Of a stretch of 64,000 bases of DNA, positions 48,701 through 64,000 are shown in pieces. A program made the position numbers and the translations under genes. Position 1 is the stretch's first letter. Each line of letters opens with the position of its first letter. Source of the DNA: Pseudomonas abieticivorans (GTDB lineage Bacteria > Pseudomonadota > Gammaproteobacteria > Pseudomonadales > Pseudomonadaceae); contig NZ_CP094975.1 in the NCBI RefSeq assembly GCF_023509015.1, forward strand, positions 503,501-567,500, read 5' to 3'. The notes under the pieces were generated by a model. It made no database searches, was not told the DNA's origin, and worked only from the letters and a program-made list of their open reading frames with translations.

Positions 48701-48748
48701 GTTCCGTCCTGCCTGTGTCAGTAATCTCTTGAAGAGAAAAGAATTCTA

Positions 48749-49912
48749 TTACGTTTTGTCGGCCAGGGGTGGCTCTGTATCGGCCATCACCGGAATAAAC
48801 AGGGTCATGGTGGTGCCCTGCCCCGGCGCGCTGCGCACCCGTACCCCGCCATTGACCTGGCGGGCAAAACCATACGCCTGTGCCAGCCCAAGGCCTGTAC
48901 CCTTGCCGTAGGGTTTGGTGGTGAAGAAAGGCTCGAAGATACGCTGTTGGGTGAGCGTATCAATACCCGAACCATTGTCCGTCACACTGATGGACACGAA
49001 ATCACCGCTCAGGTTCTCCCAACTCCCCAGCAGATGCTGGACATCGGCCTTGACCACGATCAGCCCTTCGCCGTCGATGGCATCGCGGGCGTTGAAGATA
49101 AAGTTGAGCAGTACCATTTCCAGCTGGCTGGGCTCGATCTCGATGTCCGGCAAGTGGGCCGCGATGTCGAACTGCAGGCTGATGTTCTTGGGCAAGGTTT
49201 GGCTGAACAATACCTGGGTCGACTCGATCAGCGGGCCCACCGCCACGCGCTGCACATGCAGTTGCTTGCGCCGGGCAAAGCCCAGCAGTTGCTGGGTCAA
49301 CTGGCTGCCACGGGCGCCAGCCTCAAGAATATTGGCCAGCAACGCCTGAACGCGCTCGGGCTTTTTACTGTTCAGCGCAAGGTTGGCCGAACCGATGATG
49401 ATGGTCAGCAGGTTGTTGAAGTCGTGGGCCAAGCCGCCGGTCAGCTCGCCCAGGGCCTCGAGTTTTTGCGCCTGGAACAGCTGCGCGCGCACCAGGTCCA
49501 ACTGCTGGTCGGCTTCACGGCGCGAGGTGATGTCGCGGGTGATCTTGGCAAAGCCGATGGCGTTGCCCTGCTCGTCATGCACCACGTCGAGCACCGCCAG
49601 TGCCCAGAACAGGGTCCCGTCCTTGCGTCGGCGCCAGCCTTCGTCCTGGCAACGGCCTTCGCGCAACGCGATTTGCAACAACTGCGCAGGCTTGCCCTGG
49701 GCTCGGTCCTCATCACCGAAAAACAGCGAGAAAGACTGGCCGATGACCTCGTCGGCACGGTAACCCTTGATGCCTTCGGCACCGGGGTTCCAGGTGATTA
49801 CCGTGCCATCGAGGTCGAGCATGTACAGGGCATAATCGACCACCGCCTGCACCAACAGCTCGTAACGACTGGCCTGCAATGCCTGGGAATGCAAGAGATC
49901 GACATGATCCAT
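48749..49912 (-). CDS. PAS-domain sensor histidine kinase
   Basis: A 387-residue soluble kinase. A PAS domain with PAC motif spans about 18-130 (YALYMLDLDGTVITWNPGAE, GFAKITRDIT). The phospho-histidine is in LTGGLAHDFNNLL (about 163), typical of HWE-free PAS-HATPase kinases. ATPase boxes are FIFNARDAIDG (N), VTDNGSGID (G1), FEPFFTTK (F) and GKGTGLGLAQ (G2). No membrane helix is present, so it senses an internal cue such as light or redox, which PAS can bind. It heads the operon with the KaiC-like and receiver genes. Confidence 0.9.
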   Translation of the reverse strand: MDHVDLLHSQALQASRYELLVQAVVDYALYMLDLDGTVITWNPGAEGIKGYRADEVIGQSFSLFFGDEDRAQGKPAQLLQIALREGRCQDEGWRRRKDGTLFWALAVLDVVHDEQGNAIGFAKITRDITSRREADQQLDLVRAQLFQAQKLEALGELTGGLAHDFNNLLTIIIGSANLALNSKKPERVQALLANILEAGARGSQLTQQLLGFARRKQLHVQRVAVGPLIESTQVLFSQTLPKNISLQFDIAAHLPDIEIEPSQLEMVLLNFIFNARDAIDGEGLIVVKADVQHLLGSWENLSGDFVSISVTDNGSGIDTLTQQRIFEPFFTTKPYGKGTGLGLAQAYGFARQVNGGVRVRSAPGQGTTMTLFIPVMADTEPPLADKT

Positions 49913-49988
49913 GGGCGCGGTTTTCTTGGAATAGTCGACACAGTCTACTGCGTTGTTCAGGTTCTGGGGATAGAAGCGCGGCGGCTGT

Positions 49989-50051
49989 TTCGCGGATAAA
50001 TCCGTACCCCGCAAGCCCGCGATCCCTTGTAGCAGCGGATTTATCCGCGAA
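49989..50051. repeat. REP-type inverted pair, GCGGATAAATCCG variant
   Basis: 16-bp arms at 49989-50004 and 50036-50051. It occupies the 304-bp space between the divergent kinase and FNT channel genes. The rest of 49913-50216 holds presumed promoters; I see no gene there. Confidence 0.75.
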
Positions 50052-50216
50052 CCAGATGCCGCCGATCCATCGACGCGCTCAATCACCCCATCGAAACAAG
50101 CGATTAGACGCTCCCACGCGTGCCCAGTAGATTCGCCAGCAATCAATGCCGCAAAACGTCGCAGGCATCCGCTGCAACGCAGAGCACCGTGCGCACCACC
50201 TGACCGAGCCCTTGCA

Positions 50217-51023
50217 ATGTCCCTGAACTCCCCCCAGCAAATCGCCGCCATGGCGGTTGAAACCGGCGTCAAGAAATCCCGCATGGCCGTGCCGGCCATT
50301 CTCGTGCTGGGCTTTTTGGCCGGTGCCTTTATCGCCTTGGGCTTTTTGCTGGACATCCACGTCAGCACCATGATCCCCGGGCCGTGGGCCTCGCTGGGCA
50401 ACTTGTTGGGCGCCGCGGTCTTCCCCCTGGGGCTGATCCTGGTGATCCTGGGCGGCGGCGAGCTGTTGACCGGCAACATGATGACCCTGCCCATGGCCCT
50501 GTTCAGCGGGCAAATCTCGGCCTTCGCGGTGCTGCGCAACTGGCTGCTGGTGACCGTTGCCAACCTGGCCGGGGCGCTGTTCGTCGCCTACTTCTTCGGC
50601 CACGTGCTGGGCATGACCGAAGGCGCCTTCCTGAGCAAGACCCTGGCCATTGCCAACGCCAAGGCCAGCGCCGACTTCACCCACGCGTTCATTTCCGGCA
50701 TCGGCTGCAACTGGATGGTGTGCCTGGCGGTGTGGCTGTCTTACGCCAGCAAGGAAGTCACCGGCAAGATCATCGGCATGTGGTTCCCGATCATGGGTTT
50801 CGTGGCCATCGGCTTCCAGCACGTGGTGGCGAACATGTTCGTGATCCCGGCCGGCATTTTTGCCGGCGCCCTGACCTGGGGCCAGTTTGCCGACAACATG
50901 GTCCCGGTGTTCCTTGGCAACGCCGTGGGCGGCGCGGTGTTCGTGGGCCTGGCGTACTTCGTTTCACTGGCCAAGCCCGCCGAGCCTGCCGCTGAAACCG
51001 CCGCGGCGGTGGTTGAACACTGA
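50217..51023 (+). CDS. Formate/nitrite transporter (FNT) family channel
   Basis: A 268-residue membrane protein with six hydrophobic segments, the FNT length. [17 protein letters not shown] (about 78-94) and [14 protein letters not shown] (about 160-173) match the two half-helix signatures, and [14 protein letters not shown] (about 200-213) includes the central-histidine region (H near 202). Such channels move formate, nitrite or hydrosulfide. The stop overlaps the moaA start (TGATG), an unusual partnership suggesting a link to a molybdenum enzyme such as formate dehydrogenase or nitrite/nitrate metabolism. Confidence 0.9.
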
Positions 51024-52021
51024 TGGCGCGCCCGGTGCTACGCGACGGCTTTGACCGCAAGGTCGACTACCTGCGCCTGTCCGTCACCGACCGCTGTGAT
51101 TTTCGCTGCGTGTACTGCATGGCCGAGGACATGACCTTCCTGCCGCGCCAGCAAATCCTCAGCCTGGAAGAGATTTACCAGGTGGCCGAGGCCTTCGTGG
51201 CCCTGGGCACCCGCAAGATCCGCCTGACCGGTGGTGAGCCGCTGGTGCGCCAAGGCATCGTCGGGCTGTGCCAGCGCATCGCCGCCCTGCCTGGCCTGCA
51301 CGAATTGTGCATGACCAGCAACGGCTCGCAGTTGGGCAAACTCGCCCAGCCCCTGTTCGATGCCGGGCTCAAGCGCCTCAACATCAGCCTGGACAGCCTG
51401 GACCCCACGCGTTTTCGCGAGCTGACCCGCACCGGTGACCTGGCCGGCGTGATCAAGGGCATCGATGCGGCCAACGCCGCAGGCTTTGCCCACACCAAGC
51501 TCAACTGCGTGGTGATGAAAGGCCGTAACGATCACGAGATCAACGACCTGGTGAGTTTTGCCATCGACCGCGGCCTGGACATCTCCTTCATCGAAGAAAT
51601 GCCCCTGGGCGCGATCGCCGAGCACAGCCGGGCAGACGCCTTCTACTCCAGCGAGCAGGTACGCGAGCGCATCGCCGAACGCTTCACCCTGCTGCCGTCC
51701 ACCGACTCCACCCAAGGCCCGTCGCGCTACTGGCGGCTGGCCGAAGCCCCCGACAGCCGCATCGGTTTCATCTCGCCGCACAGCCACAACTTCTGCGCCA
51801 CCTGCAACCGCGTGCGCCTGACCGTGGAGGGCCGCTTGCTGCTGTGCCTGGGCAACGAACATTCGGCAGACCTCAAAAGCGTGATGCGCCGCTACCCTGG
51901 CCAACCGCAGAAGCTTGAGAAGGCCATTATCGACGCCATGCAACTCAAGCCTTGGCGCCATGACTTCCAGCTCAATGATGAAGTACAAGTGGTGCGCTTC
52001 ATGAACATGACCGGCGGCTGA
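51023..52021 (+). CDS. moaA: GTP 3',8-cyclase MoaA
   Basis: A 332-residue radical-SAM enzyme for the first step of molybdenum cofactor synthesis. The N-terminal cluster motif is CDFRCVYC (about 26-33), followed by [11 protein letters not shown]; the C-terminal cluster is [19 protein letters not shown] (about 254-272). The C-terminal pair usually found as G-G is present (T-G-G). It is translationally coupled to the FNT channel gene rather than to moaBCDE, so it may be a second copy. Confidence 0.95.
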
Positions 52022-53332
52022 TCAACTCACCCAGAACCACACCAGCATCAGGTTGGCCAGCGAGATCAGGCCGAACAGGCCCCACGCCAGCCAGCGCGTG
52101 CCAAGGCTGTTGGCGTGCTCGCCCATCAGGCTGCGGTCGCTGGTAAAGCGAATCAACGGCCACAGCGCGAATGGTAGTTGCAGGCTCAACACCACCTGGC
52201 TCAATACCAGCAACTTGCCCACCGCACTCTCGCCAATCCACAGCACGCCAATGAAGGCCGGGATCAACGCCAGGCCCCGGGTGATCAGGCGGCGTTGGTA
52301 ACACGGGATCTTGGCCTTCAAAAAACCTTCCATCACCACCTGCCCGGCAATGGTGCCGGTGAAGGTCGAGCTTTGCCCGGAAGCCAGCAGGGCCACGCCG
52401 AACAGGATGCTGGCCAAGGTGCCGCCTACCAGCGGGTCGAGCAGGTGGTAGGCGTCCTGGATCTCGACCACGTCGGTGTGGCCGCTGCGGTGAAAGGCCG
52501 CCGCAGCCAACACCAGGATCGCCGCGTTGATGAACAGCGCCAGGCTCAGCGAGGCGATGGTGTCAAAGCGCGCGAAGCGAATGGCGCTGGCCTTGTCGCC
52601 GCCCTGGTTGGCGCGGGTCTGTACCACCGAGGAATGCAGGTACAGGTTATGCGGCATCACTGTCGCCCCCAGGATGCCGATGGCCAGGTAAAGCGGTTCT
52701 TGCTGGGTGAGCACGTCCCAGGACGGCTTGAGCCCGGCAGCCACGTCCGGCCAGAACGGTTTGATCAACGCCAGCTCGACAATGAAGCAGGCACCGATGG
52801 TGCCGATCAAGCCCAGCACGATGGCCTCCAGGCGGCGGAAGTTGGCGCCTTGCAAGGCCAGCACGATCACCGTGTCGAAGGCCGTGAGCACCACCCCCGT
52901 GGTGATCGAGACGCCCAGCAACAGGTGGAACGCCAGCGCCGCGCCCAGCACTTCGGCAAGGTCGGTGGCGGTGATCGACAGTTCGGCCAACAGCCACTGC
53001 CCCTTGGCCACCCGAGGGCTGTAGCGCTCGGCGGACAGCTGCGCCAGGTCTCGCCCGGTGACGATGCCCAACCGCGAGCAGAGGTTTTGCAGCACCATGC
53101 CGCACAAGCTGGCCAGCACCACCACGAACAGCAGCGCATAACCGAACCGCGAGCCGGCCTCGATGGCCGTGGCCCAGTTGCCGGGGTCCATGTAGCCCAC
53201 CGAGATCATCAGGCCAGGGCCCATGAACAACAGCAGCTTGCGGCCCAGCGAAGCATTGGCCGGGATGGCCACCGTGTCGCTTGCGGCGGAGGGGCAGAAG
53301 GGAGCGGTGGCGGTGGTGGGGAGTTTGTACAC
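52022..53332 (-). CDS. mntH: Nramp-family divalent metal (Mn2+/Fe2+) transporter MntH
   Basis: A 436-residue proton-coupled Mn2+/Fe2+ importer with about eleven hydrophobic segments. The metal-binding motifs are GYMDPGNWATAIEAG (about 46-60, DPGN) and GATVMPHNLYLHSS (about 219-232, MPHN). Its 3' end abuts the convergent moaA stop with no gap. I see no obvious Mn or Fur box upstream, but REP elements crowd the region 53375-53478. Confidence 0.93.
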   Translation of the reverse strand: MYKLPTTATAPFCPSAASDTVAIPANASLGRKLLLFMGPGLMISVGYMDPGNWATAIEAGSRFGYALLFVVVLASLCGMVLQNLCSRLGIVTGRDLAQLSAERYSPRVAKGQWLLAELSITATDLAEVLGAALAFHLLLGVSITTGVVLTAFDTVIVLALQGANFRRLEAIVLGLIGTIGACFIVELALIKPFWPDVAAGLKPSWDVLTQQEPLYLAIGILGATVMPHNLYLHSSVVQTRANQGGDKASAIRFARFDTIASLSLALFINAAILVLAAAAFHRSGHTDVVEIQDAYHLLDPLVGGTLASILFGVALLASGQSSTFTGTIAGQVVMEGFLKAKIPCYQRRLITRGLALIPAFIGVLWIGESAVGKLLVLSQVVLSLQLPFALWPLIRFTSDRSLMGEHANSLGTRWLAWGLFGLISLANLMLVWFWVS

Positions 53333-53374
53333 GGCAATCCTTCAAGTTTTAGCGCGGTGCATCAGGTCGTTCGT

Positions 53375-53478
53375 GGTGCTCTTTTCGCGGATGAATCCGC
53401 TCCTACGGTGCGGATTCATCCGCGAAAAGAACATGCCCCCCAGTCTGTAGGAGCGGATTCATCCGCGAAAAGAGCACC
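53375..53478. repeat. Compound REP cluster: 31-bp inverted arms with an inner third core
   Basis: Perfect 31-bp arms at 53375-53405 and 53448-53478, with a third core copy at about 53408-53427 between them. The core is GCGGATGAATCCGCTCCTA, as at the left edge of the window. The 3'-most minus-strand gene of the MoxR operon ends 22 bp away, so it probably sits in that transcript's tail and/or before mntH. Confidence 0.85.
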
Positions 53479-53500
53479 GCGACCCATCAGGTATAAGCAG

Positions 53501-56365
53501 TTAATAAAGGCTCAAGGTACGCGGCCACGCATCTTCCACATTCAAGCAGAACAACCGCCCCTGCCCATCGAACACCGTCCACTGCCCGGCCACGCAGCGT
53601 ACGCCAACGTGCTCGCGGCCCGGCCAGTGGAGCGTGGCGTAATGGCGATCATCGGCACGGTTGAAAAACCGCAGGTGCTGATGACCGCCTTCGGCCCAGT
53701 AAACCACCACCAGCCAGTCGCGGCCCAAATAAATCGACGGCCAGTCGATGGCTTCGCGGTCAAGGCCCGGCAGGTTGTAGCCAGCGCAACGGCCGCCGTG
53801 CTCGAGCATGATCACCGGGTCGGCCTCGGGGTGGTTGAGCCAATACTCGATGGGCTCGCCCGCCAGGCCAAAGGCCAGTGTCGCGCCGTCGCGCCCAGCC
53901 AACGTCAATTCGTCGCGCGCTTGCAGGCGGCGGTCCGGCAGGCGATAGCGCCAGCGTTGCAGGCCACCGTGGGTATCCTGCAGCAACAGGTGTTCGTTGC
54001 TGGCGTCGGCAAATACGCCCAGCACCTTGCCCGGCAGTTGGTCCACATGCCAAAGGGTGCCCAAGCCATTGTCCACGTCCACCACGCGCACGTGATCGGC
54101 CTTGCCAATGGTCCAGCCGATGCCGTCGAACTGGCGGGCGAAATCGTCCATGGCCACTACGCCCAGGTCATGCACGGTGCGGTTGGCCAGGTCCAGTTTG
54201 CTGACCCGCCAGACTTCGCCGCGACGAATTACCGCCAGGGCCACCTGGCGGCTTTCAGCCAACACCAGGTGCTGGGCAGGCACCGCAAATTGGCCCAGCG
54301 TGCGGCCCTGGGCATCGAGCACCAGGGCGCCCGCCTCGCCCAGGGCCACCAGGCTGCGGCCATCGTCCAGCGCCACGGCGTCAATGATTGCCCGAGCACC
54401 CGCGGTCGGGGCCTGCCATTGGCAAGGCTGGGCCACTGCGCGCAACGCCACGGTGGCCATGGGGCTGAAATTGAGTTTGGGCATGTCGGCCTGCAGCAGC
54501 GAATCGTTGCTCAGTTTGATCAGCTTTTGCACCTGGGCCGCAGGCAATTGGCGGTCGGCCACCAGTGCCCCGGCCAAGGCAGCGGCCAGCCAGGTACAGG
54601 CGCGGGAAGACTGTTTGTTGGCCAACAGGGCGCGCCCGATGGCCAGGCGCTCGGCCTGGCGCGCCGGGTCATCGCGCAACGCCAGCAGGTAGGCTTCGTA
54701 CGCCTGCAAGGTGTCGGGCAACAGCAGGGCGCGCTTGACCAGGGCCTCGGCGGCCAGCCGCTCGCCACCGGCTTCGGCGCTGCGCAGCCAGTCGGCGGCG
54801 CGCGCGCGTTCCTGCGGCAGGCTCCAGACCACGTCCACGGCCATCAACCATTGCCCTTGGGCCGCCAGGGCTTGTGCCCATTCAAGGCGCAAGCGCCCGG
54901 CCTGCTCCGGCCACTTGGCCTCAAGGGCCGTGACCGCGGCGGCAAAGGCGTTGTCACGCCGGGCCACCAGCAGCGCCCGTTGCCAATCATCGGCCAGGCA
55001 CAGGTGGCGCACGATCACCGCCGGCGGCATGTCCCAGGCCAGCGCCAGTTCGGCACTTTGCGCGTAGCGCTGGTGACGCTCCAGGTAATCCAGGGCCTCC
55101 TGGCGCACCTTGAGCAGTTCGGCCAGCACGAACACCGCTTCATCCACGCGCCCCTCGCGGTCGAGCTTTTCGAAACTCTTGCGGTACATGGTGCGCAGGT
55201 GGTCGCGAAAATCGTCGGCCAGGCCAATGGAGCGGCCGGCGCCGCGCTGCTGGCTCAGTTCCAGCTCGGTGCGCCGCTGCGGCGTGCCGAACGCCTGCAG
55301 GCTGTCACCCGGCTGGTCACCCAACGGGATGGCGTGGCGCAGCGCTTCATTCAGGTCACCCTCCTCGAACATCTCCAGCATGCGCTGCAAGTAGTCGGCC
55401 TGGCGCTTGCCGAACAGCCGGTTGAGCCGTGAGGCGCTGGCCAGGCGCGTTAACCAGCGGTCGACGAAACCTGGGGTAAAGCGCCCCTTGGGCTTGCGTG
55501 CGGGGATCCCCGCAGCCGCTGGTTTCACCGGCGCAGGCGCGGTTCCCGGTGCGCGACCCGACGGGCCCGGCGACGACTTGCCGCCAATCATCGCCGCCAT
55601 ACCGGCAAAAATGCCGAACACCAGAATGAACAGCAGCCAGCTGGTGGAAGTGGTAGGCGAGGTATGGCTGACCTCGGCCACCTCGGCCAGCGGCGCCGCC
55701 GGTTGCAACAGGCGCGGCAACAGGCCGAACACGGCCCAGGCCGCGAACAAACCGAACACCACCTTGACCGACAACCCGACGCGGCCAGTGCCTGGCTTTT
55801 CAGGCGGGCCCTGCTGTGCGCGCTGCGCCATCGCCCGCATCACCTCCTCGCGCGCAGGGTCTGGCGCACCCACCGCCTCGCCGAGGATTTCGCGGATATC
55901 GCTGCGCACCGCCAGCGGTTGCAACAGGGGGGCCGGCAATGCCGGGCTGCAGTCGAAGGTGTCGAGCAGGCTGTAGCCGTCGATGTTCAACCACTGGCCG
56001 GGGTGTAATACCTGCGCGTCGGCCAGGTGCAAGGCCACCACCTGGGAATCACGCACCAGCCACAGGTCGGCAGCGGCCAGCCCTGCGCGCTCGGTGTCGG
56101 CCAGCGGCGCCGAACACAAGGTGGCACCGCTCAACACCAGCGGCCAGCCGAGCAACTGCTCGCAGTGCAACCGTTGCGGCTCGCGCCAGCGCAGCAGGTC
56201 GCCTTGCTCGAAGCGCCAGGCGCTGGCACCCGCCTGCCAATGTTCCAGCAGCAGGCGGATGCGCTCGGGCTCGGCAAAACGCTCGGCAGGCAACCACAAC
56301 CCGGCCACGGCTTGCTGGCCACGCAACACCGGGCGCCGTACCGCCGTATCCAAGGCGTGGTTCAT
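53501..56365 (-). CDS. bpX6-like beta-propeller membrane protein of a MoxR-vWA system
   Basis: A 954-residue protein. Residues 1-190 form a mixed domain, two membrane helices follow at about 197-220 (KVVFGLFAAWAVFGLLPRLL) and 241-262, then a Pro/Gly-rich linker (GKSSPGPSGRAPGTAPAPV). Residues about 300-620 form a helical, TPR-like middle and about 640-954 a WD-like propeller with repeating strand pairs. Family features and position fit the bpX6 component of MoxR-vWA-bpX ternary systems. It is the last gene; its ATG overlaps the upstream stop (ATGA). Function unknown. Confidence 0.78.
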   Translation of the reverse strand: MNHALDTAVRRPVLRGQQAVAGLWLPAERFAEPERIRLLLEHWQAGASAWRFEQGDLLRWREPQRLHCEQLLGWPLVLSGATLCSAPLADTERAGLAAADLWLVRDSQVVALHLADAQVLHPGQWLNIDGYSLLDTFDCSPALPAPLLQPLAVRSDIREILGEAVGAPDPAREEVMRAMAQRAQQGPPEKPGTGRVGLSVKVVFGLFAAWAVFGLLPRLLQPAAPLAEVAEVSHTSPTTSTSWLLFILVFGIFAGMAAMIGGKSSPGPSGRAPGTAPAPVKPAAAGIPARKPKGRFTPGFVDRWLTRLASASRLNRLFGKRQADYLQRMLEMFEEGDLNEALRHAIPLGDQPGDSLQAFGTPQRRTELELSQQRGAGRSIGLADDFRDHLRTMYRKSFEKLDREGRVDEAVFVLAELLKVRQEALDYLERHQRYAQSAELALAWDMPPAVIVRHLCLADDWQRALLVARRDNAFAAAVTALEAKWPEQAGRLRLEWAQALAAQGQWLMAVDVVWSLPQERARAADWLRSAEAGGERLAAEALVKRALLLPDTLQAYEAYLLALRDDPARQAERLAIGRALLANKQSSRACTWLAAALAGALVADRQLPAAQVQKLIKLSNDSLLQADMPKLNFSPMATVALRAVAQPCQWQAPTAGARAIIDAVALDDGRSLVALGEAGALVLDAQGRTLGQFAVPAQHLVLAESRQVALAVIRRGEVWRVSKLDLANRTVHDLGVVAMDDFARQFDGIGWTIGKADHVRVVDVDNGLGTLWHVDQLPGKVLGVFADASNEHLLLQDTHGGLQRWRYRLPDRRLQARDELTLAGRDGATLAFGLAGEPIEYWLNHPEADPVIMLEHGGRCAGYNLPGLDREAIDWPSIYLGRDWLVVVYWAEGGHQHLRFFNRADDRHYATLHWPGREHVGVRCVAGQWTVFDGQGRLFCLNVEDAWPRTLSLY

Positions 56366-58164
56366 TGCGTGGCCTCCTGGCTCTGGGCTTGGTTACACAT
56401 CACTTGCAGGCGCATCTGCCGTTGGCGCACCGAATACACCTTCAGTTCACGCTCGGCGGTCAACACGGCCAGCATCCCGCTCAGCGGGCAGAAGCTGTGC
56501 CGCACCATGGGCGAACTGCTGGTGAATAACACTTCGATGTTCTGTTCGCTGTACAAGCAGACGCTGCGCTGGTTACCGCCCATCAACAATAGGCTGGTCG
56601 CATCCTCCGGTAGCAGGTGCAGCAAGCCAATGGCGTCGTGCCCGCCGGTCAAACGGATGATGTCTGCATGCAGGGCATCGTCGGCGCGGTTGTGCACCCG
56701 CCATTCGCCGCCCTGGCTGCCGGGGTGGTACACCGCGCAGGCGACAAAGGCCTGGCGCCGGCCGGGTGAGCCTGCGAACAGCACGTGGCTGGCGTTATCG
56801 GCCGCCCCCAACAGGAAACGCTCCTTGCCCAGGGCGCGGCTGTCCAGCGTGGTCAGGAACAGGCGCTCGCCCTCTTTTTTCACATAGGCCAGCGATTCCT
56901 GGCCCACGCGCCCCATGCCAAGCACGTGAGTTTCGAAGGGCGTGAGGGAGGTTTCAAAACGCTCGTTATTGCCGAAATAAACCAGTTGGCCCAAGGTGTC
57001 CAGGCAATACAGGCGCAGTTGCTTGCCCACCAACGACACGCACGGCAATAGCGTGGCGGTGCCGCTGGGGATCAACAGGGTGTCGCGGCCAGGCGTTGGC
57101 ACCGCCCGCAGCGCCGGGATCTTCCAGAAATGCAGGTGGTTGGCGTTCGACAGCGCCGCGGCAAAGGCATTGCCGACAAAGTCTGCCGCCACTGGCTCAA
57201 AGCCCGCGTACCACAATTGCTTGCGGCCCACCGAGGGTTTCTTCTGCCCAGGGGCCGGCACGCGAAACACCAGGGAGCCGGGCTCGTCGAGCAGCATGAC
57301 CGCCACGTGGCTGCCACTGGGCGAGATCACCGGGGCAAAACTGAGCCCCGCGCGCCAGCTTTTGCCCGGCGCGCTCGCCGTCGCCGCTCGGGTCTGGAAG
57401 TCGCCATTGAGCAAGCGCTGGCCCGCACCCTGGTGGGGCATGGGCAAGCGCAGACGCTGATGGCGCACGCCGTGCAAGTCGAGTTGGATGCCCTCGCCGT
57501 CCAGCGTGCGCTGCACCTGCACCCGGTGGGTGAAGGTGGGCGCCGCCACTTCGGGCCCCTGACGCAGGCCGACCGCCCAGCATTCACCCGGCGCCGGTGT
57601 TTGCTCGCTCAAGCACGCCTGCCAGGCCTGCCAGTGCTCGGCAGTCGCCGCGGTTTCGCCGCGCGCTTGCAGCAGGCGCTTGAGCGCTGCCGCCGAGTCC
57701 AACTCGGCCAGCACGCCGGGCTGCTGGACGATGCCCCAGTGCAACTGGCCACCGGCGTCGCGGGCGCGGCGGGCCAACAGAATCATCAACGCCAGGTGCA
57801 CCAGCCGCGGGGCGCCCCACTGCAAGGGGCCGGCGTCGAACAGCACCACCACCCGCCGGTTAGCCCGCCGTGCACGCTGCTCGGGGGCCAGAAACAGATG
57901 CTCGCCCGTGGCAGCCCGGCGCAGAAACTCGTCGGGCAGTTCGTCGGCCAGCAGCCACTCGCTGGTCAGCAGGCGCTCATAGGGGCCACGCCGCTGCAGG
58001 TCGGACAAGCCTTCAGGCTCTGGCGTGCCACCCAGTTGCACGCCGCGCAAGGGGCCCAGCAACGGGTCGATACGCCCCAACAGGTCGCTGAAACCGGGCC
58101 ACAGTTCGGGGGCAAACCAGTTCAGCCACTCGCGCCACGGCTGCAGGGCTTCAGGTAGCTGCAT
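56362..58164 (-). CDS. vWA and beta-propeller protein of a MoxR-vWA-bpX system
   Basis: A 600-residue protein. Residues about 95-210 form a vWA-type fold with VVVLFDAGPLQWGAPRLVHL (about 102-121); the metal-site motif is degenerate (D-x-G instead of D-x-S-x-S). Residues about 260-590 form a propeller with recurrent strands (GSHVAVMLL, LRLYCLDTLGQLVYF, MLAVLTAERELKVYSV). MoxR ATPases typically remodel or load vWA partners. It starts inside the last 14 bp of the preceding gene, so the two are translated together. Confidence 0.8.
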   Translation of the reverse strand: MQLPEALQPWREWLNWFAPELWPGFSDLLGRIDPLLGPLRGVQLGGTPEPEGLSDLQRRGPYERLLTSEWLLADELPDEFLRRAATGEHLFLAPEQRARRANRRVVVLFDAGPLQWGAPRLVHLALMILLARRARDAGGQLHWGIVQQPGVLAELDSAAALKRLLQARGETAATAEHWQAWQACLSEQTPAPGECWAVGLRQGPEVAAPTFTHRVQVQRTLDGEGIQLDLHGVRHQRLRLPMPHQGAGQRLLNGDFQTRAATASAPGKSWRAGLSFAPVISPSGSHVAVMLLDEPGSLVFRVPAPGQKKPSVGRKQLWYAGFEPVAADFVGNAFAAALSNANHLHFWKIPALRAVPTPGRDTLLIPSGTATLLPCVSLVGKQLRLYCLDTLGQLVYFGNNERFETSLTPFETHVLGMGRVGQESLAYVKKEGERLFLTTLDSRALGKERFLLGAADNASHVLFAGSPGRRQAFVACAVYHPGSQGGEWRVHNRADDALHADIIRLTGGHDAIGLLHLLPEDATSLLLMGGNQRSVCLYSEQNIEVLFTSSSPMVRHSFCPLSGMLAVLTAERELKVYSVRQRQMRLQVMCNQAQSQEATQ

Positions 58165-58597
58165 GGGCCCCCCACAGGGTCTGGATGCGCGGCAAGTGGT
58201 GCTCCAGGCTGAGCGGCAGTTGCCGGTCCAGCGGGATCACCAGCGCCGGCTCGCGCCACAGCAGCAGCGGTTGGCGCGGGAAGCGCGCGCTCAGCGCCTG
58301 CAACAGCAACTCGCTGCAGGCATCGGGCTGCCATTGTGTCGGCAGCCACAAGCCCGGCGCCTGGGGCGCGGGGGCGGCGTATTGAATACCGTCGACCCAG
58401 GGCAGGTCGGCGCTTTCACCGGTCACCACCAACAGCCCATGGCTGGCAGTGGCCTGCAGGCGCTTGCGCGCCCCGGCGGGCAGTTGCTGCAGGCGTGCAT
58501 GCAACTGCCGGGCAACCTCACCCCAGGCCACGGCCGCCCGTGGCGCCAACGGTTCACCACGCCGCTGCCATTGCCAGTCCTGGCCAAACACCGGCAT
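58151..58597 (-). CDS. Small bpX5-like protein of a MoxR-vWA-bpX system
   Basis: A 148-residue soluble protein with an N-terminal alanine-rich helical region, the central GLLVVTGESADLPWVDGIQY and a C-terminal PLLLWREPALVIPLDRQLPL. I recognise it mainly by position and size as the bpX5-type component; homology is a proposal. The ATG at 58597 overlaps the MoxR stop (TGATG); a GTG one codon upstream is possible. Its end overlaps the vWA gene by 14 bp. Confidence 0.7.
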   Translation of the reverse strand: MPVFGQDWQWQRRGEPLAPRAAVAWGEVARQLHARLQQLPAGARKRLQATASHGLLVVTGESADLPWVDGIQYAAPAPQAPGLWLPTQWQPDACSELLLQALSARFPRQPLLLWREPALVIPLDRQLPLSLEHHLPRIQTLWGAHAAT

Positions 58598-59718
58598 CAC
58601 AGGGCGAAAGACGTGTGGCCGGCCAATTGGCTGCGCAACGCCTGCAGTTCTTGCGGCAGGCTGTCACCGGCAAAGTTGGCATCGATCTCGCGCAACAGGC
58701 TTTCGCGCTCGGCGGCCACGCAGCTAGCGTCCTTGGCCAGGCAGTCGGTGGCCGCCTCGATCAGCCGGCCCAGGCGCGACAGTGGCTGCAAGGTGGCCTC
58801 CTCCACCGCACTGAACAAGTGGCTGTTGGCTGACAATGCAAACAGATCGCGCAATACCTCGCGGCCATGTTGCTGGGCTTGCTGGGTGGGCAACACGTAC
58901 AGCAGCGGCCACAGGTCGGCCTCGGTGGCGGTGTGTCGGCCATTGAGCACCGTGGCCGCGGCGATCAGGCGCTGCGACTTGACGATACGCCGGTCCGACA
59001 GCGTCAGGCCGGCCTCGCGCAGTCGGCGGATGGCATTGGCCAGCGCCGGGCGCACAGCTTGCAGGTCAACCTCACGCATGGCCTGGGCCAGCACGTCGAG
59101 TTGGCTGAGGTTCAACAACTGCTCGATGGGCCGGCGCTCGGACTGCCAGCCGCCGGCCAGCATCGCTTCCAACTGATGGTCGGGTACCGACTCGACAAAC
59201 AGGTGCAGCAGGAACCGATCGCCAAAGGCGGCCAGGCCTTCGTCATCTGGCAGGCCATTGGCCGCGCCCACACACACCCGCAGCGGGCAGTCGACCTGGG
59301 TATGGCCACGGCGAAAGCGCCGTTCGTTGAGCACGCCCAGCAAGGTGTTGAGAATGGCGGTGGAGCCCAAAAACACTTCGTCCAGGAACACGATGTCGGC
59401 TTCTGGCAGCATGCCGGTGGTGTCGGTCTCGACCCGGCCTTCGCGCAGTTTTTGCAGGTCTACCGAACCGAACAGTTCGGAGGGCTCGGTAAAGCGCCCC
59501 AGCAAATATTCGAAATAGCGCCCGCCCATGGCCTGCGCCACTCGTCGCACGACCGCGCTCTTGGCGGTGCCAGGCGGGCCGACAATCAGGATGTGCTCCT
59601 GGGCCACGGCGGCCAGCACGATCAGTTCAGCCAACTGCTCACGGCCTACCAGGCCTTCGGTGGCCACCCGCACGGCGGCACGCACCTGGTGGGCTGCTTC
59701 CTGCAACAACGCATTCAT
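58597..59718 (-). CDS. MoxR-family AAA+ ATPase (RavA-like)
   Basis: A 373-residue AAA+ ATPase. Walker A is GPPGTAKS (about 47-54), Walker B is IVFLDEVF (about 108-115), and LLGVLNERRFRRG and FGDRFLLHLFVESVPD match the MoxR sensor-1 and arginine-finger regions. The C-terminal helical lid and tail cover about 230-373. MoxR proteins act as chaperones that mature vWA partners or activate enzyme complexes. First gene of a four-gene operon whose members all overlap, so a stoichiometric complex is likely. Confidence 0.93.
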   Translation of the reverse strand: MNALLQEAAHQVRAAVRVATEGLVGREQLAELIVLAAVAQEHILIVGPPGTAKSAVVRRVAQAMGGRYFEYLLGRFTEPSELFGSVDLQKLREGRVETDTTGMLPEADIVFLDEVFLGSTAILNTLLGVLNERRFRRGHTQVDCPLRVCVGAANGLPDDEGLAAFGDRFLLHLFVESVPDHQLEAMLAGGWQSERRPIEQLLNLSQLDVLAQAMREVDLQAVRPALANAIRRLREAGLTLSDRRIVKSQRLIAAATVLNGRHTATEADLWPLLYVLPTQQAQQHGREVLRDLFALSANSHLFSAVEEATLQPLSRLGRLIEAATDCLAKDASCVAAERESLLREIDANFAGDSLPQELQALRSQLAGHTSFAL

Positions 59719-59839
59719 TTAAAACACTTCCCTGACAGTTCAAGGGGCAAGCCTGCCCGAAAAAAAGCGCGCGGGCAAAACGTCTGGCTGCCCGAAAGTA
59801 AAAGATATCATTGTGCCATCAATTGGTCTGCCCGGCATT

Positions 59840-59862
59840 ATTAATGCTTATTACGCATTAAT
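59840..59862. promoter_or_regulatory. Dyad operator candidate upstream of the MHS transporter
   Basis: ATTAATGC (59840-59847), 7 nt, GCATTAAT (59855-59862): perfect 8-bp arms in an A/T-rich intergenic patch, 108 bp before the transporter ATG. It lies in the 251-bp gap between the divergent MoxR and transporter genes. The regulator could be the LysR protein at the end of this locus; unproven. Confidence 0.5.
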
Positions 59863-59969
59863 AGATGTGAAAAATGCACTTATCAAATCAGTCCGCATCC
59901 GCGACCATCCGCCGCATACAAGATCCATGCGCCCCAAGCGCGTGCTATAAAATGCTGGGAGATAATCAC

Positions 59970-61271
59970 ATGCAGGCCTCTAACCTGGGCGCTAAGGCGT
60001 CCGCTCGTTCCAAGGCAGGCGCGGTGTTTCGCGTCACTTCAGGCAACTTCCTCGAACAGTTCGACTTCTTCCTCTTCGGCTTCTATGCCACCCAGATCGC
60101 TTCGGTGTTTTTCCCGGCCAGCAGCGAATTCGCCTCCCTGATGATGACCTTCGCGGTGTTCGGCGCAGGCTTTCTGATGCGCCCGCTGGGCGCGGTCATC
60201 CTGGGTGCGTACATCGACGACGTGGGCCGCCGCAAGGGCCTGATCGTGACCCTGTCGATCATGGCCAGCGGCACGATCCTGATCGTGCTGGTGCCCGGCT
60301 ACGAGACCATTGGCTTGCTGGCACCGGCGCTGGTGCTGATCGGTCGCCTGCTGCAAGGCTTTTCGGCCGGTGCGGAACTGGGCGGCGTGTCGGTGTACCT
60401 GGCCGAGATGGCGCCACCGGGCAAGAAAGGCTTCTTCACCAGCTGGCAGTCGGCCAGCCAACAAGTGGCCATCGTGGTGGCCGCAGGCTTGGGCTTTATC
60501 CTCAACCAGACCCTGAGCACCAGCGAAATCGCCGCTTGGGGCTGGCGCGTCCCGTTCGCCATCGGCTGCATGATCGTGCCGTTCATTTTCCTGCTGCGCC
60601 GCAAGCTGGAAGAAACCCAGGAGTTCCAGCAACGCCGCCACCGCCCGAGCATGCGCGAGGTGTTCAACACCCTGCTGCACAACTGGACCATCGTGCTGGC
60701 CGGCATGCTGATGGTGGCGATGACCACCACCGCGTTCTACCTGATCACCGTGTACGCCCCCACTTTCGGCAAGAGCGTGCTGAACCTGAGCACCTCCGAC
60801 GCGCTGCTGGTGACCCTGCTGGTGGGCGTGTCGAACTTCATCTGGCTACCCATCGGCGGCGCAATCTCCGACCGCATTGGCCGTCGACCCTTGCTGGTAG
60901 GCATGACTTTGCTGGCCATCGTCACCTCCTACCCTGCCCTGTCGTACCTGGCCCAGGCGCCGAGCTTCGCGCACATGCTGATCGTGCTGCTGTGGCTGTC
61001 GTTCATGTACGGCCTGTACAACGGCGCGATGATCCCGGCACTGACCGAAATCATGCCGGTGGAAGTGCGCGTGGCGGGTTTCTCCCTGGCCTATAGCCTG
61101 GCCACTGCCGTGTTCGGCGGTTTTACCCCGGCCATCTCCACCGCGCTGATCCACATGAGCGGCGACAAGGCGGCCCCCGGTTACTGGATGAGCTTTGCCG
61201 CGGCCTGCGCCCTGGGTGCCACGCTGTTCCTGTACCGCCGTGGTACGCCGCAACTGCGCCCGGCGATGTGA
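59970..61271 (+). CDS. MHS-family proton symporter, citrate/tricarballylate/dicarboxylate type
   Basis: A 433-residue major facilitator with twelve hydrophobic segments. [19 protein letters not shown] and [18 protein letters not shown] mark the metabolite:H+ symporter family, and the sequence is closest to citrate carriers such as CitA/Cit[11 protein letters not shown] (about 305) is the second-half MFS loop. I used the ATG at 59970, preceded by GGGAG; an ATG at 59952 would add six residues. It precedes a solute-binding protein gene by 31 bp. Confidence 0.85.
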
Positions 61272-61282
61272 CCCTGTTTTCG

Positions 61283-61293
61283 ACAATAAAAAG
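61283..61293 (+). promoter_or_regulatory. Candidate Crc/Hfq (CA motif) site before the solute-binding protein gene
   Basis: ACAATAAAAAG contains AATAAAAA (AANAANAA) and runs straight into the GAGAG ribosome-binding site of the gene at 61303. Confidence 0.45.
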
Positions 61294-61302
61294 AGAGACA
61301 CC

Positions 61303-62085
61303 ATGAACGCATTGTTCAAGACCTGCACCGCCACCGCCCTGTTGGCGGGCATCGCCTTCAGTACCCAGGCGTTGGCCGAAGAGCTGAAAGTGATGACCTC
61401 GGGCGGCTTCACCGCCGCCTACAAAGTGCTGGGGCCGCAGTTCGCCCAGCAACACGGCGACACCCTGGACACCATCCTTGGGCCGTCGATGGGCAAGTCC
61501 GCCGAAGCCATCCCCAACCGCCTGGCGCGAGGGGAAAAGGCTGATGTGGTCATCATGGTCGGCTACGCCCTGGACGACCTGATCAAACAGGGCAAGATCC
61601 TGCCGGGCTCACGAGTGGAACTGGCCGATTCGCGCATTGGCCTGGTGGTGAAAGCCGGCGATCCGAAACCTGCAATCGGCACCGTGGACGAATTCAAGGC
61701 CACCTTGCTCAAGGCCAAGTCGGTGGCCTACTCCGACAGCGCCAGCGGCGTGTACGTGCAGAACGAGATGTTCAAGAAGCTAGGCATCGAAGACCAACTC
61801 AAACCCAAAGCCACCATGGTGCCGCGCGTGCCGGTGGCCGGGGTGATTGCCCATGGTGATTACCAGTTGGGCTTGCAGCAGGTCAGCGAAATCCTGCCGA
61901 TCGAAGGCGCAACCTACGTGGGCAAGATCCCGGAGTCGGTGCAATCGGTCACCCGCTTTGCCGCGGGGATCCCGGTAGGGGCCGAGCACCCGGATGAGGC
62001 GCGCGCGTTGCTTGCGTATTTGGCCTCCTCGCAGGTGCAGAAGGATGTGCAGGCGACGGGGTTGGATTCGGTGCCGGCCAAGTAG
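61303..62085 (+). CDS. ModA-like periplasmic substrate-binding protein, orphan
   Basis: A 260-residue exported protein: signal peptide to about residue 25 (STQALA-EE), then a type-2 binding fold with LKVMTSGGFTAAYKVLGPQF (28-47) and conserved ADVVIMVGYALDDL and SVAYSDSASGVYVQNEMF. It resembles ModA/PBP-like extracellular proteins, but no ABC permease or ATPase lies nearby. Pairing with an MHS symporter suggests it captures a carboxylate and may be a sensor or scavenger. The binding residues cannot be assigned. Confidence 0.85.
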   Translation: MNALFKTCTATALLAGIAFSTQALAEELKVMTSGGFTAAYKVLGPQFAQQHGDTLDTILGPSMGKSAEAIPNRLARGEKADVVIMVGYALDDLIKQGKILPGSRVELADSRIGLVVKAGDPKPAIGTVDEFKATLLKAKSVAYSDSASGVYVQNEMFKKLGIEDQLKPKATMVPRVPVAGVIAHGDYQLGLQQVSEILPIEGATYVGKIPESVQSVTRFAAGIPVGAEHPDEARALLAYLASSQVQKDVQATGLDSVPAK

Positions 62086-62110
62086 GAGCGGATTTATCCG
62101 CGAATCGCTA

Positions 62111-62225
62111 TCGCAAGCAAGCTTGCTCCCACATTGCTTGCACGTGCCGTACATTCAAAACAGGCAGCGCCGCTCTCACAGGCTTGGGGCACTTTGCAAA
62201 AATGTGGGAGCAAGCTTGCTTGCGA
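62111..62225. repeat. BIME-type inverted repeat, CAAGCAAGCTTGCTCCCACA family
   Basis: Perfect 25-bp arms at 62111-62135 and 62201-62225. A third repeat type, distinct from the GCGGAT-AATCCGC and GCGGCTTGCCGGCGAT families, follows a GCGGATTTATCCGCGAA core at 62087-62103. The intergenic region 62086-62277 holds nothing else I can name. Confidence 0.85.
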
Positions 62226-62277
62226 ATAGGCGCAGGCGGCCGGTGGTGGCCATTTTTGAATCCCCAGGCAGCTCAAC

Positions 62278-63186
62278 TCACCCCACCGCCAACGGCATCT
62301 TCATCTCCACGATCAAGCGCTCCAACTCCAGCGCCGCCGGCGTCAGCGCACGCCCTCGGCGCTTGATCAGGCCCACGCTGCGCACTACTTGCGGCTCCAC
62401 CAACGGCACACTGGTGAGCAACTGGTGCCCGGCGCCAGGCATTGCCATCGACGGTACCGCCGCAATCCCCAACCCCGCCTCCACCAAGCCGAGCATCGTG
62501 GTCACGTGCCGCGTCTCGCAGATGCTCGGCTGCGCCGGGGTGATGTGGCGCAGCGCCAGGTCGAGCACCGCGCGGTTGCCCGAGGTTTTGTCGACGCTGA
62601 TGTGATCAAAGGTGTAGTACTGCTCCCAACTCACGCTGGCGCGCCCTGCCAACGGGTGGTCGCGACGGCAGGCGGCCACGTAGTGTTCTTGCAGCAACAG
62701 CTCGAATTCCAGCTCCGCCTGCAGGTTGCCCAGAAAGCTCAAGCCCACGTCGGCCTCACCGCTCACCACCGCCTCTTGCACGTCACGGGCACTGGCATCG
62801 AGCACCTTGATGCGAATGCGCGGGTACAACCGGTGATAACGCGCCACCACGCTGGGCATGAAGTAGTAGGCAGCCGACGGCACGCACGCCACCGTGACAT
62901 GCCCCAGCCGGGTCGATGCCACATCGCTGATGCCTAGCAAAGCCAGGTCCAGGTCGTTGAGCAAGCGCTCGGCACTGGGCGCGAACGCGCGGCCCACCAT
63001 GGTCAGGCTGACCCGCCGGGTGGTGCGGTCGAACAGGCGCACGCCCAGGGCACTTTCGAGTTTTTCGATGCGCCGGCTCAGGGCCGGTTGCGAAATGCTG
63101 ATGGCCTCGGCAGCCTTGCGAAAACTGCCCTTCTCCACCACGGCGCGAAAGGCCTGGAGGTCGTTGAGGTCGAAGTTGATGCTCAT
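62278..63186 (-). CDS. LysR-family transcriptional regulator
   Basis: A 302-residue LysR protein: helix-turn-helix at about 5-65 (GSFRKAAEAISISQPALSRRI), effector domain from about 92 with VTVACVPSAAYYFMPSVVAR and ARDVQEAVVSGEADVGLSFLG. It is convergent with the solute-binding protein gene, from which it is separated only by repeats, and probably regulates the carboxylate uptake genes. The ATG at 63186 begins SINFDLNDLQAFRAVV, a normal start. Confidence 0.92.
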   Translation of the reverse strand: MSINFDLNDLQAFRAVVEKGSFRKAAEAISISQPALSRRIEKLESALGVRLFDRTTRRVSLTMVGRAFAPSAERLLNDLDLALLGISDVASTRLGHVTVACVPSAAYYFMPSVVARYHRLYPRIRIKVLDASARDVQEAVVSGEADVGLSFLGNLQAELEFELLLQEHYVAACRRDHPLAGRASVSWEQYYTFDHISVDKTSGNRAVLDLALRHITPAQPSICETRHVTTMLGLVEAGLGIAAVPSMAMPGAGHQLLTSVPLVEPQVVRSVGLIKRRGRALTPAALELERLIVEMKMPLAVG

Positions 63187-63294
63187 GCCAAAGCCTTGGG
63201 GCGGTGCGTAAGAGCTGGAGTTTACACTGGCCTGCAGTCCACCCCCCAGCCTTCTCCCCGAGGAACGGCGACCTATCGACGATTGCGGGTGTCG

Positions 63295-63384
63295 TTGCTC
63301 TTGCTCTTGCTCTTGCTCTTGCTCTTGCTCTTGATCTTGATCTTGATCTTGATCTTGATCTTGATCTTGATCTTGATCTTGATC
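63295..63384. repeat. Hexanucleotide satellite: 6 x TTGCTC then 9 x TTGATC
   Basis: Fifteen in-phase 6-bp units over 90 bp, with a sharp change of unit at 63331. The array would translate as runs of alternating residue pairs in every frame, but no gene covers it. Confidence 0.95.
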
Positions 63385-63997
63385 TGCTTTTGATCTTGAT
63401 GGTATGCCCCGTAAAGCGCCCGGGCCGACTGGAGGCGTCGATCAAGGGGCGGCCCGCAGGGCCCGAGGCGTAGCCGAGGAAGACGGCAGCCGGCAAGCTT
63501 CTATAGCCGGTGCCGTCTGCCCCTTGATCGACGCCGGAAGGAGGGGACCCGCAGCGCAGCGGAGGGCCCAAGCAGGGGCAAGCCTTTTTTGCTTACTTTT
63601 TGTGGCGTTTGACAAAAAGTAAGACGCCGTAAGGGCGGAAAGGTGAAGTGATCGCGCCATTGATAATGGATATGTTCACGCATCTTTGAAGCTTGCTCTT
63701 AAAACGGTGAACATATCCATTGGTTAGGGTGATGCCGAATCACCTTTCCGGCCTTACGCCGGCTCACTTTTTGTCAAACGCCACAAAAAGTAAGCAAAAA
63801 AGGCTTGCCCCTGCTTGGGCCCTACGCTGCGCTACGGGTCCCCTCCCTCCGGCATCGCTCAAGCGGACGACGGCCCGGAATAGAAGCTCCTCCGGCTCCG
63901 TCTCCGGCGGCTACGCCTCCGGCCGCTTGATCGACGCCTCCAGTCGGCCCGGGCGCTTAATGGGGCATACAATCAAGATCAAAAGCCAAGCAGATCA
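63381..63997. repeat. Nested large inverted repeat reaching the window edge
   Basis: Four nested arm pairs: about 63381-63446 with 63926-63997; 63564-63622 with 63765-63822; 63626-63645 with 63740-63760; and 63665-63679 with 63707-63721 (AATGGATATGTTCAC and its complement). Arms are imperfect, centred near 63693. No gene is credible in 63187-64000. It looks like a repeated intergenic element of the kind found many times in fluorescent Pseudomonas genomes. Confidence 0.8.
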
Positions 63998-64000
63998 AGA

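What the first reader, a model, noticed from the sequence alone, without database searches (positions are those of the whole stretch)
53501..59718. Four-gene MoxR / small / vWA-propeller / membrane-propeller operon (MoxR-vWA-bpX type)
Seen: MoxR ATPase, then a 148-residue protein, a 600-residue vWA+propeller protein with a degenerate metal site, and a 954-residue protein with two membrane helices and a C-terminal propeller. Every junction overlaps (1 bp, 14 bp, 4 bp), so translation is coupled and the products probably form one complex. Known: computational work on NTP-driven conflict systems describes MoxR-vWA-beta-propeller ternary systems with bpX domains; to my knowledge their activity is unknown. 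Inference: a membrane-anchored, ATP-driven assembly in which the ATPase loads a vWA adaptor and propellers recognise a target.
Basis: partly seen in the sequence, partly recalled or inferred. Interest (0 to 1): 0.85.

Follow-up and report, generated by a model that had tools for sequence, protein, structure and literature searches.

The report
Known MoxR-propeller operon, job unknown
A Pseudomonas chromosome carries an intact set of four overlapping genes for a likely ATP-driven protein machine with two ring-shaped recognition domains; the kind was predicted by computation in 2020, its job is still unproven, and the set appears to be kept or lost as one unit.

Summary
On the minus strand, 59718 to 53501, four intact genes overlap by 1, 14 and 4 nt: a RavA-like MoxR ATPase (Pfam bpMoxR), a 148-aa bpX5 protein, a 600-aa vWA-like plus propeller protein, and a 954-aa bpX6 protein with a membrane hairpin, helical solenoid and propeller. 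This is the beta-propeller type of MoxR-vWA system predicted by Kaur et al. (2020), so the kind is known; my searches found no experiment on it. New here: the four genes keep one order in 89 of 89 loci that hold all four; 15 of 199 genomes of the genus carry the set, and bpX5 and bpX6 were found in no other; both propellers model as full rings; the vWA metal site is replaced by a nearly invariant DxGPxQxGxxR; the membrane hairpin is lineage-specific (not seen in Myxococcaceae and nearly all Lysobacteraceae); evolution is slowest in the ATPase, faster in the propellers, fastest in the linker; 23 of 37 Pseudomonadaceae copies share a promoter-like element. Profile tests did not confirm the vWA identity. 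Best reading: an accessory ATP-driven remodelling or surveillance machine; defence is plausible but unproven.

The parts
58597..59718 (-). MoxR-type AAA+ ATPase (bpMoxR), 373 aa; P-loop GPPGTAKS, Walker B FLDE
   Evidence: PF20030 299 bits; nearest solved structure RavA, E 1.2e-40; GxxxTAKS in 85 of 88 rows
58151..58597 (-). bpX5 protein, 148 aa from ATG; fold not tested
   Evidence: PF19921 172 bits, residues 8-143
56362..58164 (-). vWA-like plus beta-propeller protein, 600 aa: helical N part 1-86, Rossmann-like part about 104-250 with DxGPxQxGxxR, propeller about 268-592
53501..56365 (-). bpX6 protein, 954 aa: bpX6 domain 9-178, two membrane helices 199-219 and 243-260, helical solenoid 300-627, propeller 648-952
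59719..59873 (-). upstream region with promoter-like element TTTGC...GGCAGGCT, its GGCAnRMT box starting 39 nt before the ATG, and CAGGGAAG before the start
   Evidence: box in 23 of 37 Pseudomonadaceae loci against a shuffle mean of 0.46; sequence
53371..53482 (.). REP-like double inverted repeat just after the operon
   Evidence: inverted repeats; similar copies elsewhere in the same genome

Best explanation
An intact, chromosomal member of the bpX5/bpX6 branch of the MoxR-vWA-beta-propeller systems, gained and lost as a unit of four genes, probably with its own promoter. Shown: gene content, order, all-or-none distribution in the genus, predicted domain layout, rate differences. Inferred: a RavA-like ATPase ring grips the slowly evolving N-terminal helical part and the altered metal-site face of the vWA-like adaptor; ATP hydrolysis moves the adaptor; the two faster-evolving propellers hold a target or each other; the bpX6 protein is the scaffold, its solenoid the conserved core, and in Pseudomonas a hairpin holds it on the inner membrane. 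The most likely job is conditional remodelling or surveillance of a membrane-near target, more likely against invaders or stress than as housekeeping.
For: Pfam bpMoxR, bpX5, bpX6. The same 15 of 199 genus genomes have bpX5, bpX6 and a bpMoxR of 290 bits or more; the vWA-like gene is in the fetched locus of each of the 15. Same order in 89 of 89 loci with all four (by stop positions). Median dN/dS: MoxR AAA 0.03, vWA N-helical 0.065, solenoid 0.12, bpX6 N domain 0.16, bpX5 0.17, propellers 0.19 and 0.22, membrane linker 0.42 (18 chosen pairs). About 43 neighbourhoods among 66 loci by a crude rule. Shared promoter-like element. P. syringae carries the same four genes, clade-specific, in a region of genome plasticity (PMC9677677, passages). 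NorQ-NorD (PMC13036017, outline and abstract) and RavA-ViaA at the inner membrane (PMC9489729, passages) show how MoxR-vWA pairs can work.
Against: No effector enzyme recognised. No PADLOC family for the three non-ATPase proteins. Flanks show no evident defence enrichment, though without a control. bpX5: no phage or plasmid hit; bpX6: no phage hit and one weak partial plasmid hit. Median dN/dS is below 1 in every region. The tree mostly follows families, so transfer is mostly local. Profile comparison did not recognise a vWA domain.
Confidence: 0.5

Rival explanations
1. A dedicated chaperone of the RavA-ViaA or NorQ-NorD kind that matures or remodels one accessory membrane or envelope protein; no conflict role.
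For: Nearest solved MoxR is RavA; RavA-ViaA acts at the inner membrane (PMC9489729 passages); one copy of bpX5 and of bpX6 in each of the 15 carriers, strong purifying selection on the motor and a mostly family-wise tree.
Against: No constant neighbour that could be the client: about 43 neighbourhoods in 66 loci; patchy, 15 of 199; the hairpin is not universal; the client would have to be absent or dispensable in most of the genus.
Confidence: 0.3
2. Anti-phage or anti-invader immunity, as Kaur et al. proposed, with the propellers as exchangeable sensor heads and membrane damage or containment as the output.
For: Patchy all-or-none distribution, plasticity region in P. syringae, faster propellers and linker, single cases that look like propeller exchange: Lysobacter pair L105/L089, vWA propeller 44% identical where the solenoid is 81%; L060/L053, bpX6 propeller dS 0.08 where other parts are 0.39-0.79.
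Against: No clustering with defence genes seen, no phage carriage, no known effector, not in PADLOC. The N-terminal bpX6 domain, part of the paper's candidate effector region, is not faster than bpX5 (0.16 against 0.17). Only two clear exchange-like cases, the second picked by eye and both among 3160 non-independent pairs. No one-face pattern of loop variation was established.
Confidence: 0.35
3. The 600-aa protein is not a vWA protein at all; its Rossmann-like part is another fold and the system is unlike MoxR-vWA pairs.
For: 0 of 75 relatives gave a Pfam vWA family at E up to 1 in the 19 families listed; hhalign probability 0.2% or less against three vWA sets.
Against: Strand-helix-strand order with an invariant Asp at the end of the first strand fits a divergent vWA; the hhalign register, though not significant, sets this strand on the metal-site strand; Kaur et al. 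describe vWA domains lacking one or both Asp in a subset of this type.
Confidence: 0.12

Closest known systems
MoxR-vWA-beta-propeller ternary systems (Kaur et al. 2020, eLife, PMC7159879, subsystem 4; Pfam bpMoxR, bpX5, bpX6)
   Same: MoxR with GxxxTAKS, vWA-like protein with C-terminal propeller, third protein with N-terminal domain, membrane segment, TPR-like solenoid and propeller, an extra linked gene
   Different: In this branch four components are constant, not three plus optional extras; the propellers model with about 26 and 28 strands (about seven blades; the paper says about four for the vWA protein); the membrane segment is missing in whole families; the fastest part is the linker, not the N-terminal domain
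RavA-ViaA (E. coli)
   Same: Nearest solved MoxR relative; MoxR plus vWA partner acting at the inner membrane (PMC9489729, passages)
   Different: No propellers or bpX proteins (recalled); the ATPase match covers residues 20-270 only; far below the RavA equivalog cut-off
NorQ-NorD, CbbQ-CbbO, CoxD-CoxE
   Same: MoxR ring acting on a vWA partner (NorQD: PMC13036017 abstract; the others recalled)
   Different: Comparison of the window family with CoxE-type vWA domains was not significant
VMAP, iSTAND and FtsH MoxR-vWA systems
   Same: Same MoxR-vWA theme; the FtsH type shares GxxxTAKS and divergent vWA domains (PMC7159879 section 22)
   Different: No VMAP, STAND or FtsH gene among the four

Membership tests
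MoxR-vWA-beta-propeller ternary system (bpX) | MoxR of the bpMoxR family; GxxxTAKS P-loop (said to be frequent) | tested here: met
   299 bits; GPPGTAKS in the window, GxxxTAKS in 85 of 88 rows. The Pfam cut-off alone is not specific: 199 of 199 genomes exceed it, other paralogues with 65 bits or less
MoxR-vWA-beta-propeller ternary system (bpX) | vWA domain in the second protein | tested here: inconclusive
   Pfam: no vWA family in 75 relatives; hhalign 0.2%; secondary structure and invariant Asp compatible
[quoted passage not shown]
MoxR-vWA-beta-propeller ternary system (bpX) | Third component with globular N-terminal domain, membrane segment, TPR-like region and propeller | tested here: met
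MoxR-vWA-beta-propeller ternary system (bpX) | Extra conserved linked gene in a subset (here bpX5) | tested here: met
   172 bits
MoxR-vWA-beta-propeller ternary system (bpX) | Activity in biological conflict | not testable with these tools
   No experiment found in searches
RavA-ViaA | MoxR of the RavA equivalog | tested here: not met
   NCBIfam RavA 172 bits, cut-off 681
Catalogued anti-phage systems (PADLOC 2.0.0) | Match to a defence family beyond generic AAA | tested here: not met
   No match for three proteins; six weak AAA matches for MoxR

The most novel reading that the evidence does not exclude
The four genes encode an ATP-driven immune or stress receptor without any enzyme effector: a conserved motor, adaptor base and solenoid scaffold carry two propellers that diverge, and are now and then exchanged, as recognition heads, and the membrane contact is a swappable lineage-specific part.
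Probability: 0.3. Interest if true: 0.75.

Novelty: new member of a known kind. Interest (0 to 1): 0.45.

Why it matters
This type of system was predicted from sequence in 2020, and my searches found no test of it. The work here gives a closed four-gene unit, a natural presence/absence contrast within one genus (15 of 199), a nearly invariant replacement motif to mutate, and a prediction of which parts recognise targets. That makes the question of defence or chaperone directly testable in a laboratory Pseudomonas.

Tried and rejected
Conserved neighbour as a clue to the client: rejected. 66 loci fall into 43 neighbourhoods (loci that share three or more of up to eight flank-gene clusters are one group; gene calls are crude and short contigs may be split off). 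In the relatives listed (38 searched) the window's two flanks are never adjacent: 15 kb or more apart, or on other contigs. Flank families: 161 flank genes from 43 loci were listed, 143 were scanned (73 in A4, 70 in A5; I left out 18, mostly short ones). The commonest Pfam families are LysR, response regulator and MFS (only 25 of 98 and 25 of 96 families are shown). PADLOC gives hits by one or two members per family. No background sample was taken.

Link with the nearby metal and molybdenum genes (NRAMP, MoaA, binding protein): rejected, the arrangement was not found in the relatives searched.

Amphipathic membrane helix replacing the hairpin in families without it: not supported, 4 of 40 rows ranked within the top 10 of 200 shuffles, where about 2 are expected.

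Variable loops on one face of the propellers: bpX6 p 0.62; vWA propeller p 0.056 with unsure strand parity; not claimed.

vWA by profile: no Pfam vWA family in 75 relatives, PDB sequences only weak propeller matches, hhalign against three vWA sets not significant. The structure lists were filled by propellers, so the N-terminal half is barely tested; vWA chains did not appear there, which says nothing. The bpX6 profile against PDB sequences: 0 hits. bpX5 was not folded.

RNA families at 50000-64000: none. Canonical sigma-70 scan at 53300-60000: none.
Full report
OBSERVATION. The start of the small protein is best read as the ATG at 58597 (148 aa), which makes the 1-nt overlap; the ORF list took a GTG one codon earlier. 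Pfam names three of them: bpMoxR (299 bits), bpX5 (172), bpX6 (209), each far over the cut-off of 27. The 600-aa protein matches no Pfam or NCBIfam family at E up to 1. PADLOC has nothing for the three non-ATPase proteins.

WHAT IT IS. Pfam's descriptions of these families name the MoxR-vWA-beta-propeller ternary systems, which I take to be those of Kaur, Burroughs, Iyer and Aravind 2020 (PMC7159879; I read the outline and abstract, passages and the whole of section 22; that Pfam drew on this paper is recalled). The paper names plant-pathogenic Pseudomonas among the carriers and calls the systems enigmatic because no conventional effector is seen. In searches of the held library I found no experimental work on them (bpX6 was found in one paper, bpMoxR in none). 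That one paper, on P. syringae, lists four genes (ravA, bpX5, '6ND4', bpX6) as unique to a clade and lying in one region of genome plasticity (PMC9677677, passages).

A CLOSED FOUR-GENE UNIT. In 199 genomes of the genus, bpX5 is in 15 and bpX6 in the same 15. bpMoxR reaches 290 bits or more only in those 15; the other MoxR paralogues have 65 bits or less. The vWA-like gene was not searched genus-wide but stands in the locus of each of the 15. The genus is Pseudomonas by the names of contigs of equal length. Of 398 genomes drawn from the phylum, 3 have bpX6, the window's own included. A scan of genome contigs found 90 relatives of the bpX6 protein and kept 80, with named hosts: Pseudomonas, Variovorax, Rhizobacter, Chitinibacteraceae, Lysobacter, Xanthomonas, Massilia, Myxococcus, Corallococcus and others. 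By stop positions the order is MoxR, bpX5, vWA-like, bpX6 in 89 of 89: one search sorts by open-frame start and shows 84, and I checked the other five by their stops. Junctions lie within 20 nt in 71 of 89, 74 of 89 and 78 of 87 cases, and overlap in 45, 63 and 44, with guessed starts. So bpX5 is a standing part of this branch, not an optional extra. Variants: five myxobacterial loci have 1.6 to 4.9 kb between the MoxR stop and the bpX5 frame (L109, L113, L114, L117, L119); one Massilia has two vWA-like genes in tandem (L107); one Pseudomonas genome has broken vWA-like and bpX6 frames (L032, L082).

THE METAL SITE. In 90 aligned rows (window and some repeats included) the motif DxGPxQxGxxR stands in 88 and the canonical DxSxS in 1; D110, Q115, G117 and R120 are invariant in all 91 rows of the column count (window twice); at the position where I place the second metal-site Asp (199), Gly prevails, 78 of 91. 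So this is not decay but a fixed replacement. Still, no vWA profile recognises the domain (hhalign 0.2%), and the label stays unproven here.

EVOLUTION. For 18 chosen near pairs (some loci used more than once) median dN/dS rises from MoxR AAA (0.03) and the vWA N-helical part (0.065) through the solenoid (0.12), the vWA-like domain (0.16), the bpX6 N domain (0.16) and bpX5 (0.17) to the propellers (0.19 for bpX6, 0.22 for vWA) and the membrane linker (0.42) (counting method, no site test; the window pair has dS above 1 throughout). This agrees with a fixed motor and scaffold and freer recognition parts, but all medians are below 1. The paper's variable N-terminal region is here mainly the linker. 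Two pairs look like exchange of a propeller: L105/L089 and L060/L053, picked from many non-independent pairs.

MEMBRANE. By a simple hydropathy rule two segments stand in the linker of 24 of 30 named Pseudomonadaceae loci (5 have one; the one with none is the broken L082). Of 14 unnamed loci of the family 9 have two, 3 one, 2 none: the broken L032, and L043 with a short linker. Two segments also stand in 4 of 5 Comamonadaceae, 2 of 3 Sphaerotilaceae and 2 of 3 Chitinibacteraceae; one in 6 of 8 Oxalobacteraceae; none in 13 of the 14 Lysobacteraceae loci whose linker is held and in 10 of 10 Myxococcaceae. The rule is crude: it also fires on 83 of 89 MoxR rows, which should be soluble. An amphipathic substitute was not supported. 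So membrane anchoring looks like a lineage trait.

SITE AND PROMOTER. The 66 loci with enough flank fall into 43 neighbourhoods by a crude rule. In two relatives that have the operon it lies about 0.2 Mb (G011) and over 2 Mb (G017) from the MFS and binding-protein pair that flanks it in the window. A box GGCAnRMT 36 to 41 nt before the MoxR start, preceded by TTTGC or TTG, occurs in 23 of 37 Pseudomonadaceae loci at several different sites; 14 lack it. In 300 mononucleotide shuffles the box appears in 0.46 rows on average, 3 at most. The pattern was drawn from the same sequences, the rows are related, and a sigma-70 role is a guess (the canonical scan found none). The tree of MoxR plus bpX6 mostly groups rows by family (quick method, several long branches), so spread is mainly within families, with much loss.

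MECHANISM. See Best explanation. The nearest solved ATPase is RavA, whose partner ViaA works at the inner membrane (PMC9489729, passages); NorQ-NorD shows a ring engaging a vWA partner and twisting its linker (PMC13036017, outline and abstract). By analogy the ATPase here would work on the vWA-like adaptor. Defence and dedicated chaperone remain close rivals; I lean to surveillance because the distribution is all-or-none and no constant client gene was found nearby.

Noticed in passing
window 63295-63400: Tandem array of the hexamer TTGATC, 17.8 copies, about 110 bp upstream of a LysR-type regulator gene (62278-63186, minus strand); could vary in length and tune that gene.
   Followed up: no
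window 47258-50563: KaiC-like ATPase gene next to a PAS-HisKA-HATPase sensor kinase gene.
   Followed up: no
window 50217-53332: Formate/nitrite transporter, MoaA and NRAMP genes side by side; in the relatives where both were listed, MoaA and NRAMP are 65 kb or more apart or on other contigs.
   Followed up: partly
window 53371-53482: REP-like double inverted repeat with several similar copies in the same genome.
   Followed up: partly
L123 (Comamonas sp. KCTC 72670), L104 (Eremiobacteraeota bin): These copies sit among Myxococcus and among Oxalobacteraceae in the tree; mislabelled assembly, bin contamination or transfer.
   Followed up: no
L109, L113, L114, L117, L119: Myxobacterial operons with 1.6 to 4.9 kb between MoxR and bpX5, some with a much longer MoxR frame.
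   Followed up: no
L107 6362-10023: Massilia frigida operon with two vWA-like genes in tandem.
   Followed up: no
L032, L082: One Pseudomonas genome in which the vWA-like and bpX6 frames are each split in two.
   Followed up: no
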